Shown one piece after another: positions 20,713-24,582 of a stretch of 64,000 nt of DNA (within the stretch, counting starts at the first letter, position 1; every line of letters starts with the position of its first letter). The notes under the pieces were generated by a model. That model searched no databases. It had not been told where the DNA came from and saw only the letters and a program-made list of their open reading frames with translations. The stretch lies in contig CM038466.1 in NCBI GenBank assembly GCA_021464415.1, positions 31,712,833 through 31,776,832 of the forward strand, given 5' to 3'. Source of the stretch: Lonicera japonica (lineage: Eukaryota; Streptophyta; Magnoliopsida; Dipsacales; Caprifoliaceae). The position numbers and the translations under genes were made by a program.

Positions 20713-21012
20713 TGTTAAAGGAGATGATTCCTCTGATCCCTTCTATGCTGGATGATTCCCTTCTATGCTGGATGATTCCCTTCTATGCTGGATTATTCCT
20801 CTTTATTTCCTTTATTCATGTATTGCACTTATGATGTTCCTCTGTAATTATTTATGTATTGTTTTCTTGTCTCCTAGATCTAGTTTTGTTCTTGTATATA
20901 TATGGGCATAGATCCCTTGTAAACTGGGAAGCTTAACAATGTAACCCATTTGGGATCTTGAAGCATTAATATAATTGTTCACTTCTATTTCTATCTTGTA
21001 TAATATTTAACA
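20713..21012 (+). repeat. 5' LTR
   Basis: This 300-bp LTR starts TGTTAAAGG and ends TTTAACA. It contains three tandem copies of a 20-bp unit built on CCCTTCTATGCTGGATGATT at about 20749-20793, and a TATATATA box at 20895-20902 that probably drives element transcription. Its match to the 3' LTR suggests very recent insertion. Confidence 0.95.
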
Positions 21013-21024
21013 TGGTATCAGAGC
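21013..21024 (+). other. primer-binding site (initiator Met tRNA)
   Basis: TGGTATCAGAGC lies immediately 3' of the 5' LTR. It is complementary to the 3' end of plant initiator tRNA-Met, the usual Copia primer. Confidence 0.9.
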
Positions 21025-21127
21025 ATTGTTCGATTTTTCTCACCCAAAATTTGTGGGTTCTACCTTTTCCGGCAGTGGCCTTTTGCCGCCTGCCCGGTTA
21101 ACAATCAAAGAGCTTCCTTCTGTCTTG

Positions 21128-21131
<4 letters not shown>

Positions 21132-21161
<30 letters not shown>
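21132..21161 (+). other. A tract between retroelement leader and captured PYL sequence
   Basis: About 30 consecutive A lie just before the captured PYL leader. Further A tracts lie at about 21956-21989 (interrupted by one C shortly after) and 22178-22196. Such tracts could be remnants of mRNA tails joined during reverse transcription or simple slippage products. Confidence 0.6.
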
Positions 21162-21163
<2 letters not shown>

Positions 21164-21207
21164 AAAGCAAACGAACCTGCCTTCAATCTCTTTCATCCCA
21201 TTGGAAA

Positions 21208-21567
21208 ATGCATACAAATCAACAAAGATCACCTCTTCTACTTCACAGAATAAACACCTCCTCCGGTTGCCTCAAGCAATCTCCACAAAAATCCCCCACC
21301 ACCACCGTCTCTCGGCGGTCTCCTCTACCTTGCTCTACCCCGGTTCCGGAAGCAGTCGAGCGCTACCACATCCACGTGCTGGGGCCCAACCAGTGCTGCT
21401 CCGCCGTGATCCAACAAATCTCCGCCCCCCTTTCCACCGTCTGGTCCGTCGTCCGCCGGTTCGACAACCCCCAGGCCTACAAGCACTTCGTCAAGAGCTG
21501 CCAGGTCACCGTCGGGGAAGGGAGCGTCGGCACTCTCCGCGAGGTCCACGTCATCTCCGGACTCCCT
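21208..21567 (+). pseudogene. captured 5' half of a PYR/PYL abscisic acid receptor
   Basis: The frame opens with MHTNQQRSPLLLHRIN, typical of PYL4-type N termini, and continues through GPNQCCSAVIQQISAP, WSVVRRFDNPQAYKHF, GTLREVHV and ISGLP. The last is the gate loop that closes over abscisic acid. Sequence homology stops there: the latch (HRL), the C-terminal helix and most of the START-like fold are missing. About 40 bases upstream resemble a genuine leader preceded by an A tract. After 21567 the frame continues for twelve meaningless codons into DUF620 sequence before a stop at 21601-21603. It cannot make a working receptor. A truncated protein could in principle still be made from the LTR promoter, but nothing here shows that. 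Confidence 0.9.
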
Positions 21568-21773
21568 CTGTTGCTTCGAATGCCTACAAAAGGTCTGATC
21601 TGAGACTGTTGCTTGGGGTTATGGGTGCTCCTCTCGCCCCGGTGCACGTTAGCACTACTGACCCTTTGCCTCACCTCAGCATCAAGGACACTCCTATTGA
21701 AACATCATCTGCCCAGTACATACTCCAGCAATACACTGCTGCTTCAGGAGGGCTAAAGCTCCAAAACTCCATT
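21558..21773 (+). pseudogene. captured fragment of a DUF620 family protein
   Basis: In the frame one base away from the PYL piece, the sequence reads RTPSVA, KRSDLRLLLGVMGAPLAPVHV, DPLPHLSIKDTPIETSSAQ and YILQQYTAASGG, ending at LQNSI. This is the strongly conserved N-terminal block of the plant DUF620 family, whose biochemical role is unknown. Both ends are cut: the preceding N-terminal sequence is absent, and homology stops at 21773, where unrelated sequence starts. The first ten bases (21558-21567) are readable as either PYL (SGLP) or DUF620 (RTPS), suggesting a template switch at short homology. Confidence 0.88.
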
Positions 21774-21950
21774 CCAGATCCGGTCCTCCGATCACACCAA
21801 CAAACACCTCTCGCCACTTTTTGTATTTAATTACATTCAATCTCCTTCAGCCACTTCGCCGCCGGCAACAGCTCCAGCCTTCACAGCTTGCGCCACGGCA
21901 GCTTCAACTTCCTCAGTCTCTCAAGTGATTGATCTCTGATGATTTCTAGA

Positions 21951-21990
<40 letters not shown>

Positions 21991-22727
21991 AAAAAAAAAA
22001 AATTGTAGAGAGAGAAAGACTGATTGAAAGGAAATGGCAGTGAAAAGGCAATGGGTAGTGCCTCTTGACTGTCTTTGGTGTTGGTTAAAGAAAAAGTAAC
22101 GACCAGCTTTAATTATGTGTGTGCTACTGCTGCAAGCACTACAATCGGTGCTTTAGGGGAAATTACTTTTTTATTTAAAAAAAAAAAAAAAAAAAAGAGG
22201 AAAAGAAAAAGAGGAGTAAATTTGTAAAAGTAGAATTTTTCAAAAGGTTCTGTTGGGTTCCCAGAAATTTTTTTTTCTCTTTCAGTTTGATCTTATACAC
22301 TTTCTGGTTTCATATTTCAGTCCAGAAAAGTTTCAAAAGGTTTTGATATTTGTAGTTTAGCCCCAAAACGTTTTTCGACAGTCGTGGATTCACCGTTTAA
22401 GGTTTCTGATTTTTCCTTTTAGCCCAGAAAGTTTATCCAAAATCAGTCACGCGCGCTCACACGTGACATTTCCACTTGAAGTCATGTTAAGACAATACCA
22501 TAACCGACAACCCGCAAATTCCGTAAACTCCAAACCCTCGCCATCATCAAATGCCGACATCTTTTTGCTCTGACCTCGAAATTCGAAATTCAAATTTCGA
22601 GATCGGCGCCTTTAACCCTTTCACCAGCTTCCTGCCTTTAAAATCAAAACACACCATCCTCACTGCAAATCACCCAATAGCACCATCCTCACTGCAAATC
22701 TCCCATTCAAATCCAATACAAACAGCC
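21774..22727 (+). other. retroelement interior of unidentified origin
   Basis: Between the DUF620 fragment and the LBD frame there is no recognised coding region. A GC-balanced stretch to about 21945 ends in an A tract. The remainder is T-rich, leader-like sequence with a duplicated ACCATCCTCACTGCAAAT phrase at about 22652 and 22682, just before the LBD start. It may be captured 3' and 5' untranslated sequence. Confidence 0.4.
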
Positions 22728-23911
22728 ATGTCGATCAGCATCCGACAGCGAGGTACTCCATGTCCTGCCTGCTCTTTTCGCCGCAGAGCTTGTCCTCCTT
22801 CTTGTGAATCAGTTAAAATCTTTCCAAATGCGTATCATCGTCGAGATTATCACACAATCTTTCCGTTTTCGGGGTAAAAAGTGTTGAATTTTTTTTACAA
22901 CACGTACCGGATCACAAACATCGTGAAACTCTCGATTCGTTTCTCTTTGAAGCTAAGGCAAGAATCCTAAATCCTGCTGGTGGATGCGCTGCCCTCCTTA
23001 CCTCTCTTGATCAAAAGCTTGAGGCTCTGCAGTCACGAATGACGGCGTTGGAGGCTCGACTGGACAGCGAGTCTCCCAGGGTTAATCCGTCATTTTCCTT
23101 TGTCCCTCCTGCAAGTTCCTCAAGGGCCAATCCATCCGACTCCCTTGCTCACCCACCAGGCTCCGTCGCTTCTCCATCCGGCTCTGGTCGACGCCGCCAC
23201 CGTTCGACCGGAAAACTGCCGGAGAAAACTCCAGCCTCCAGGTCATTTGCCTACCCATCCGGCTCCTTTAATCACCCATCCAGCTCCTTTGCCTCTCCAC
23301 CTTGCTCCTTTAACCTTCCTGCAAGTTCCTCAAGGGCCAATCCATCTGACTCCCTTGCTCACCCACCAGGCTCCTTCGCTTCTCCATCCGGCTCCTTTAC
23401 TCACCCATCCGGCTCCTTTGCCTCTCCACCTGGCATCTTTAACCCTCCTGCAAGTTCCTCAAGGGCCAATCCATCCGACTCCCTTGCTCACCCACCAGGC
23501 TCCTTCGCTTCTCCATCTGGCCCCTCAGAGAATCCTCTAGAACCTGGGGTTCTTCCGACCCAGGAATATTTGTTGGAGCATCCTCACTACAAAAGTTTTT
23601 TAAGGCTCCTCTCATCAACCCCTGATATCCGTCTACCAACCGTGAATCCTTCCGAACACGGGGATCCTCTGACAGCAGTAGATATGCCGGCATATCCGAC
23701 TCTGTCAGATTACCAAGTTGCTTTGGATGGTTTCTCAAAGGGGTCTCCTCAAATTAGTTCTGTTGCGGAGGTTGCCGGATTAATGACTCCGGATTGGACT
23801 ACCTTAGGAGATATAGAATACAATTCGCTCTCTGCTTCTAACTTCACTGATATCTTGAATTTTGGTGCTGATGATTCTCAGAATCCATCGTCTTTCTCTT
23901 TTTTTCCTTAA
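22728..23911 (+). pseudogene. captured LOB-domain (LBD) transcription factor frame, one frameshift
   Basis: From the ATG at 22728 the product starts MSISIRQRGTPCPACSFRRR and shows the exact LOB zinc-finger spacing C-x2-C-x6-C-x3-C (CPACSFRRRACPPSC). A one-base loss near 22860-22862 shifts the frame. The other frame then gives the GAS-type FGVKSVEFF, the block RETLDSFLFEAKARILNPAGGC and a coiled LTSLDQKLEALQSRMTALEARL, which fits L-x6-L-x3-L/M-x6-L. It runs open to a stop at 23911. LBD proteins are plant-specific DNA-binding regulators of organ boundaries and other programmes. The C-terminal half has Pro/Ser/Gly repeats. The usual family intron is not seen, consistent with an RNA-derived copy. 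I read it as a degraded passenger. If the missing base is an assembly error, it would be an intact gene of about 390 residues. Confidence 0.8.
23107..23530 (+). repeat. in-frame repeats in the LBD C-terminal region
   Basis: A block encoding PASSSRANPSDSLAHPPGS recurs three times (near 23109, 23318 and 23448), separated by shorter HPSGSF / SPPGSF units. The DNA copies are nearly identical, which suggests recent unequal exchange or slippage during replication of the element. Confidence 0.85.
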
Positions 23912-24270
23912 TAATGTGTGTTCCCTTCCTCCTCTCCCTGTCCAGTCACCTCCGTATCTCATAGACTTGCTTACCATTCACACGACAAATTGCCGGGACT
24001 TGTCCTGGACCACAAATTTAAAACCAACCTTTTGCATCGCCTTCGGGCGAGTCCAAATCCACTCAGCCTGTTATACGTACTGCTCGCGTATTCAGATCAA
24101 GTTTTTATTTCCTCCGAAAATTTCTACACCGGACCTCGCCGTTCTGTCGGCTCCTGTTATTTTCGTTACCGCCGTTCCTTTTGCCGGTCAATCATCAAAC
24201 ATGTCGAACAACCAAAACCAAATTCCATTTTCTCGCATCCAAGCTTCGGATCTCTAAGAGCCTCCTTCAG
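23912..24270 (+). other. retroelement 3' interior, unidentified, possibly captured
   Basis: This stretch is GC-balanced and has long open frames in two registers (23862-24257 and 23918-24325). I cannot match either product to a family. It may be a fourth captured piece or the element's own 3' sequence. Confidence 0.35.
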
Positions 24271-24282
24271 CTTGAGGGGGGG
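24271..24282 (+). other. polypurine tract of the LTR retrotransposon
   Basis: CTTGAGGGGGGG lies directly before the 3' LTR, in the position used to prime second-strand synthesis. Confidence 0.85.
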
Positions 24283-24582
24283 TGTTAAAGGAGATGATTC
24301 CTCTGATCCCTTCTATGCTGGATGATTCCCTTCTATGCTGGATGATTCCCTTCTATGCTGGATTATTCCTCTTTATTTCCTTTATTCATGTATTGCACTT
24401 ATGATGTTCCTCTGTAATTATTTATGTATTGTTTTCTTGTCTCCTAGATCTAGTTTTGTTCTTGTATATATATGGGCATAGATCCCTTGTAAACTGGGAA
24501 GCTTAACAATGTAACCCATTTGGGATCTTGAAGCATTAATATAATTGTTCACTTCTATTTCTATCTTGTATAATATTTAACA
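24283..24582 (+). repeat. 3' LTR
   Basis: This LTR of 300 bp matches the 5' LTR at every base I compared, including the three 20-bp tandem units. It is followed by the TTGAG target duplication. Confidence 0.95.

What the first reader, a model, noticed from the sequence alone, without database searches (positions are those of the whole stretch)
20713..24582. Young LTR retrotransposon whose whole cargo is host gene pieces
Matched LTRs, target duplication, primer site and purine tract define a complete element, yet the interior shows no retroviral-type gene. It shows a PYL abscisic acid receptor half, a DUF620 piece and an LBD frame in series, all in the sense orientation. One element combining an abscisic acid receptor, a DUF620 protein and an LBD regulator is, as far as I know, not a described family. 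It could place new chimeric transcripts under LTR control.
Basis: partly seen in the sequence, partly recalled or inferred. Interest (0 to 1): 0.95.

Follow-up and report, generated by a model that had tools for sequence, protein, structure and literature searches.

The report
Young LTR retrotransposon carrying host-gene pieces
A recently inserted plant jumping element has none of its own genes and carries broken pieces of at least two, probably three, unrelated plant genes between its ends, a rare but already known kind of gene capture.

Summary
The element spans 20713-24582. It has two identical 300-bp LTRs, a 5-bp target duplication (TTGAG), a primer site directly after the 5' LTR and a purine tract directly before the 3' LTR. 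Pfam finds no gag or pol domain in any of the 36 interior ORFs of at least 50 aa. The N-terminal half of a PYL receptor (E 8.4e-27) and a LOB/LBD gene broken by a frameshift (Pfam 0.0028 and 2.1e-10) are real and in sense. The DUF620 piece I recognise only from memory; no tool confirms it.

None of the pieces can make its normal protein. The only A or T runs of 20 or more in the window are three sense oligo(A) tracts inside the element, which fits template switching onto mRNAs. Copy number, donors and an autonomous partner could not be tested: the host-genome search did not complete (16 tries).

Precedents: maize Bs1 and soybean GmaRetroS15 (three genes each), pepper NLR retroduplication. This gene combination did not appear in two paper searches. 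New member of a known, uncommon kind.

The parts
20708..20712 (.). left target-site duplication TTGAG
20713..21012 (+). 5' LTR, 300 bp, TG...CA; TATA-like motif at 20895
   Evidence: identical to the 3' LTR; motif scan
20737..20799 (+). 20-bp tandem repeat, 3.2 copies, near the start of the LTR (presumed U3)
21013..21024 (+). primer binding site TGGTATCAGAGC, no spacer after the LTR; fits initiator tRNA-Met
   Evidence: sequence; tRNA complement recalled
21025..21132 (+). unassigned leader
   Evidence: only hits below cut-off in the ORFs covering it (DUF6025 0.044); no similarity above shuffles to the 3' segment
21133..21161 (+). oligo(A) tract, 29 A
21208..21573 (+). N-terminal half of a PYL abscisic acid receptor, from an ATG 46 bases after the A tract to about ...ISGLP; the C-terminal half is absent; the frame runs 131 aa to a stop at 21601-21603
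   Evidence: PDB PYL5 E 8.4e-27, query 6-122 to chain 21-138 of 223; Pfam Polyketide_cyc2 3e-5, just below cut-off
21579..21785 (+). frame resembling the N-terminal part of a DUF620 protein, out of frame with PYL
   Evidence: recognised from memory only; no Pfam match, no PDB match
21786..21953 (+). unassigned segment, C-rich
   Evidence: no Pfam match in the ORFs covering it; composition
21954..22002 (+). oligo(A) tract, 36 A + C + 12 A
22003..22176 (+). unassigned segment
   Evidence: no Pfam match in the ORFs covering it
22177..22196 (+). oligo(A) tract, 20 A
22197..22727 (+). AT-rich stretch then C-rich stretch upstream of the LBD start (promoter-like or 5' UTR-like)
   Evidence: composition; interpretation inferred
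22728..22877 (+). LBD gene, first part: ATG and CX2CX6CX3C motif; this frame closes at 22875-22877
   Evidence: Pfam LOB profile 1-28, E 0.0028, below cut-off; Ramosa2 chain 8-38, E 0.0015; motif read from the translation, its name recalled
22862..23911 (+). LBD gene, rest in the next frame (frame changes between 22862 and 22868): LOB domain to 23047, then a low-complexity tail to a stop at 23909-23911
   Evidence: Pfam LOB profile 35-96, E 2.1e-10; Ramosa2 chain 44-109, E 3e-6
23243..23500 (+). two adjacent 129-bp repeats in the LBD tail (91% alike); a weaker third copy (61%) at 23033-23161
23912..24271 (+). unassigned 3' segment with an 18-codon frame (ATG 24201, stop 24255-24257), possibly the remnant of a gag start
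   Evidence: one hit below cut-off (DUF6453 0.01); the gag reading is a guess
24272..24282 (+). polypurine tract TTGAGGGGGGG
24283..24582 (+). 3' LTR, 300 bp
24583..24587 (.). right target-site duplication TTGAG

Best explanation
A recently inserted non-autonomous LTR retrotransposon that keeps only the cis signals (LTRs, primer site, purine tract). Its interior was replaced by pieces of unrelated host transcripts, in sense: a PYL receptor half, probably a DUF620 piece, and an LBD gene with sequence upstream of its start. Most likely the element's RNA was packaged with host RNAs in particles made by an autonomous relative, reverse transcriptase switched templates more than once (some switches at poly(A) tails), and the hybrid cDNA was later copied and inserted here, inside an old relic that resembles a sarcosine oxidase gene. 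Shown: anatomy, identical LTRs, no gag or pol domain, PYL and LOB homology, sense orientation, sense-only oligo(A) tracts. Inferred: supply of proteins in trans, template switching, the order of captures, the DUF620 identity. No working protein is expected from the cargo; any effect would be through RNA (chimeric transcripts or small RNAs against the donors).
For: 0 of 300 LTR differences, TSD, PBS and PPT. 0 of 36 interior ORFs of at least 50 aa carry a retroelement domain. PYL E 8.4e-27. LOB in two adjacent frames with complementary parts of the profile and of the Ramosa2 structure. The three A tracts (29, 36+12, 20) hold the only A or T runs of 20 or more in 64 kb and all lie in sense in the element; outside it the longest is T19. 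The PYL ATG lies 46 bases after an A tract, as after a short 5' UTR, and the PYL match stops inside the coding region, as a template switch would leave it. One review describes template switching between element RNA and packaged mRNA and says that in theory it can occur several times (passage of PMC5408686). About 72% of retroduplicated pepper NLRs lie in LTR elements without gag or pol coding potential (passage of PMC5664825).
Against: Intron loss could not be tested without donor genes. The 167 bases before the longest A tract do not look like a 3' UTR (47% GC, 56 of 167 C). The LBD start is preceded by about 530 bases that look partly like promoter, which suits read-through RNA or DNA capture better than a normal mRNA. 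The A tracts might be slippage products. The LBD tail repeats differ almost evenly over codon positions (3, 4, 5 of 12), so they give no sign that this frame was under selection. DUF620 rests on memory. No second copy was seen.
Confidence: 0.75

Rival explanations
1. Mixed origin: the LBD part is an old resident of this non-autonomous family and only the PYL-DUF620 part is a late capture from mRNA. (This overlaps with the best explanation; the odds are not exclusive.)
For: The LBD part has a frameshift and diverged tail repeats, whereas the PYL frame is open from its ATG through the whole match of 122 codons.
Against: The state of the donors is unknown; the frameshift may have been in the donor.
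Confidence: 0.3
2. DNA-level assembly: the gene pieces were put together first by another route (Helitron, Pack-type transposon or local rearrangement) and the element then took the block up as DNA or as one read-through RNA.
For: About 530 non-coding bases precede the LBD start and look partly like promoter or intergenic sequence.
Against: All recognised pieces are in sense; sense-only A tracts; the repeat search of 20300-25100 shows one inverted pair only, a 25-nt palindrome at 23668-23709. Helitron ends were not searched for.
Confidence: 0.15
3. Assembly artefact joining unrelated sequences between two LTRs.
For: No second copy or read data could be seen.
Against: Matching TSD and signals in the right places at both ends, and the sarcosine-oxidase-like relic seems to continue across the site (likeness from memory).
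Confidence: 0.03
4. Ordinary non-coding LTR element; the gene likenesses are chance.
For: Some Pfam scores lie below cut-off (PYL family 3e-5, first LOB part 0.0028); DUF620 has no tool support.
Against: PYL E 8.4e-27; LOB 2.1e-10, above cut-off.
Confidence: 0.01

Closest known systems
Bs1 of maize (review PMC13317346, passages)
   Same: LTR element with pieces of three unrelated host genes (membrane ATPase, xylan endohydrolase, beta-1,3-glucanase)
   Different: Other genes; Bs1 is reported to give a transcribed and translated chimeric gene, whereas here the frames do not join
GmaRetroS15 of soybean and other gene-carrying TRIMs (PMC4717578, section read)
   Same: Small LTR elements with 5-bp TSDs; GmaRetroS15 carries fragments of three host genes
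   Different: Gene-carrying TRIMs there are 1,172-1,449 bp; this element is 3,870 bp; exon-only cargo is shown there but could not be tested here
LTR-mediated retroduplication of NLR genes in pepper (PMC5664825, abstract and passages)
   Same: Host genes inside LTR elements, about 72% of them without gag or pol coding potential, so moved in trans
   Different: Copies of one gene family; here pieces of unrelated genes in one element
Gene-fragment captures in maize LTR elements (PMC2774510, passages)
   Same: Host-gene fragments inside intact LTR elements (425 elements)
   Different: Under that survey's conditions no element held fragments of more than one standard nuclear gene

Membership tests
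LTR retrotransposon | paired direct LTRs with TG...CA ends and target duplication | tested here: met
LTR retrotransposon | PBS after the 5' LTR and PPT before the 3' LTR | tested here: met
   tRNA complement recalled
Non-autonomous LTR element | no gag or pol | tested here: met
   36 of 36 interior ORFs of at least 50 aa without a Pfam retroelement domain
Copia superfamily | integrase before reverse transcriptase, or RT phylogeny | not testable with these tools
TRIM | very small size (gene-carrying TRIMs 1,172-1,449 bp) | tested here: not met
   3,870 bp (coordinates)
Multi-gene capture element (Bs1-like) | fragments of more than one unrelated host gene | tested here: met
   PYL and LOB; a third, DUF620, from memory only
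mRNA-derived retrocopy | intron loss against the donor gene | not tested
mRNA-derived retrocopy | 3' poly(A) | tested here: inconclusive
   three sense A tracts, but the sequence before the longest is not like a 3' UTR
Repeated family with an autonomous partner | further copies and a gag-pol partner sharing the LTRs | not tested
   The genome search busy in all 16 tries

The most novel reading that the evidence does not exclude
The element is a serial collector of host RNAs: at least three successive captures, each leaving its poly(A) tail in place, so that one insertion records the order of template switches and is still young enough to be mobile and to make small RNAs or hybrid transcripts against an ABA receptor, a DUF620 gene and an LBD regulator together.
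Probability: 0.25. Interest if true: 0.55.

Novelty: new member of a known kind. Interest (0 to 1): 0.36.

Why it matters
LTR elements with pieces of several unrelated genes are uncommon: none in the maize survey under its conditions; Bs1 and two TRIMs, one of them GmaRetroS15, are the cases I saw in print. A young one with retained oligo(A) tracts would let the order and kind of template switches be read from sequence. If several copies exist, it could show whether such cargo affects the donor genes through small RNAs. It does not create a visible new protein.

Tried and rejected
Intact chimeric protein: rejected; the PYL frame stops at 21601-21603, the DUF620-like frame is out of register with it, and LBD changes frame between 22862 and 22868. 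A hidden gag-pol: rejected at Pfam sensitivity in 36 of 36 ORFs. Duplicated leader on the 3' side: not above shuffles (score 24, maximum of 200 shuffles 27; the five other segment pairs in that call were not above shuffles either). Selection on the LBD tail from its internal repeats: no sign (3, 4, 5 differences at codon positions 1-3). Exact 30-base LTR piece in prokaryote genome contigs (for contaminants): 0 matches. RNA families in the window: 0. DUF620 by its peptide words in papers: 0 papers; by Pfam or PDB: nothing. Papers with LTR retrotransposon, captured, abscisic acid receptor and LOB domain: 3 listed, none on such an element by title and abstract start; multi-gene LTR capture: precedents only in the listings. 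One PDB search was run one base out of frame for the first LBD part and counts for nothing; it was repeated in frame.
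Full report
What is there. Two 300-bp LTRs are identical, begin TG and end CA, and are flanked by TTGAG on both sides (20708-20712, 24583-24587). TGGTATCAGAGC, which from memory fits initiator tRNA-Met, follows the 5' LTR without a spacer, and TTGAGGGGGGG lies directly before the 3' LTR. The LTR carries a 20-bp tandem repeat of 3.2 copies and a TATA-like motif at 20895. With 0 of 300 differences the insertion is young; by a rate used for grasses (recalled, 1.3e-8 per site per year) and an upper bound of three differences it would be younger than about 0.4 million years, but the rate for this plant is unknown.

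Site. Reading the flanks with one TTGAG removed gives frames that look, from memory, like the end of a sarcosine oxidase gene with stops and frame changes, running across the insertion point. Tool support is weak: Pfam DAO E 0.038, below cut-off. The insertion therefore probably fell in an old gene relic. Of ten further ORFs of the window scanned with Pfam, six gave a match above its cut-off (one hexapeptide transferase, three with DYW or PPR domains, one putative phosphatase, one Ndr family protein), one a weak zinc knuckle and three nothing. This reads as ordinary plant gene space. ARAGORN and Rfam found no tRNA and no RNA family in the window.

No element genes. One search lists 43 ORFs of at least 50 aa over 20600-24700; seven lie in the LTRs or flanks. 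The other 36 were scanned with Pfam (8; 10; 9; 9). None matched a retroelement domain. Besides PYL-type (Polyketide_cyc2, Polyketide_cyc) and LOB, the hits were DUF1573, DUF6025, DUF7310, PspB, DUF6453, RbcS, a dynein assembly factor and PPL4 (E 0.01 to 0.21), all below their cut-offs; I take them as chance.

Cargo, piece by piece. (a) PYL. From the ATG at 21208 a 131-aa frame matches PYL5 over its residues 6-122 (chain 21-138 of 223, E 8.4e-27), so it ends at the gate loop (SGLP, name recalled) and lacks the later part. Pfam Polyketide_cyc2 is 3e-5, just below its cut-off. (b) DUF620-like. The frame 21579-21785 reads like the N-terminal part of DUF620 proteins from memory; neither Pfam nor PDB recognises it, and no paper held its peptide words. 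It is out of register with PYL. (c) LBD. An ATG at 22728 opens a frame with a CX2CX6CX3C motif (motif name recalled). Pfam LOB 1-28 matches with E 0.0028, below cut-off, and LOB 35-96 matches in the next frame with E 2.1e-10. The Ramosa2 LOB structure matches the same two parts: chain 8-38 (E 0.0015) and 44-109 (E 3e-6). The parts are complementary, so this is one LOB domain broken by a frameshift between 22862 and 22868. A low-complexity tail with 129-bp repeats follows to a stop at 23909-23911. All pieces are in sense.

What is not assigned. The three frames sum to 1,757 of 3,270 interior bases. The leader, 21786-21953, 22003-22176, 22197-22727 and 23912-24271 are not assigned. An 18-codon frame before the purine tract (24201-24257) could be the remnant of a gag start; this is a guess.

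The A tracts. Runs of A or T of 20 or more occur three times in 64 kb: A29 at 21133, A36 (then C and A12) at 21954, A20 at 22177. All are in the element and in sense; outside it the longest is T19. They suit poly(A) tails kept after switches between packaged RNAs. Against this, the sequence before the longest tract is C-rich and not like a 3' UTR, and the LBD start follows some 530 bases that look partly like promoter. I hold template switching as the most likely route, but a mixed origin is open.

How it most likely works. Transcription starts in the 5' LTR; the RNA has a primer site and purine tract but no proteins of its own, so an autonomous relative must supply particle, reverse transcriptase and integrase. 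During reverse transcription the enzyme switches from element RNA to packaged host RNAs and back. Such switching is described in a review, which says that in theory it can occur several times (passage of PMC5408686); abnormal switching between element RNAs is proposed for wheat relatives (abstract of PMC1950507; passages of PMC13317346). The anatomy is shown; each step of the route is inferred. A useful hybrid protein is unlikely.

What is known. Maize Bs1 carries pieces of three genes (passages; PMC2899935 itself is not held). Two TRIMs carried exons of more than two genes, among them GmaRetroS15 of soybean with pieces of three (section). In pepper about 72% of retroduplicated NLRs sit in LTR elements without gag or pol coding potential (passage). 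A survey of rice and sorghum lists 672 and 1,343 captured genes (abstract). In maize 425 intact elements with gene fragments were found, none, under the survey's conditions, with fragments of more than one standard nuclear gene (passage). So the kind is known and a multi-gene cargo is uncommon. This combination did not appear in my searches (open-licence papers only).

What could not be done. Hence no donor, copy number, partner or intron test. The organism is not identified here; that it is a flowering plant is inferred from the genes.

Verdict. Observation confirmed except for the DUF620 identity and the word 'whole'; interpretation partly supported; new member of a known kind; interest 0.36.

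Noticed in passing
window 14556-15940 and 16471-17859: A stretch of over 1.3 kb is repeated at a spacing of about 1.9 kb; the pieces that the repeat search joined are 81-90% alike.
   Followed up: no
window 15112-15230, 17038-17156, 35199-35317: AT-rich repeat in three places, 74% and 87% like the reference copy, possibly a miniature transposon.
   Followed up: no
window 25345-25820 and 28667-29151: Repeat of about 480 bp in pieces of 80-88% identity, probably a duplicated exon of a minus-strand MYB-like gene (gene identity from memory).
   Followed up: no
window 41490-41776 and 45499-45785: DYW domain of a PPR gene present twice at 91%; the first copy stands in a short ORF of 117 aa.
   Followed up: partly
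window 20540-20712 and 24588-24620: Relic resembling the end of a sarcosine oxidase gene (mostly from memory; Pfam DAO 0.038), with stops and frame changes, split by the element.
   Followed up: partly
window 56279-56704: 213-bp tandem duplication, 92% alike.
   Followed up: no
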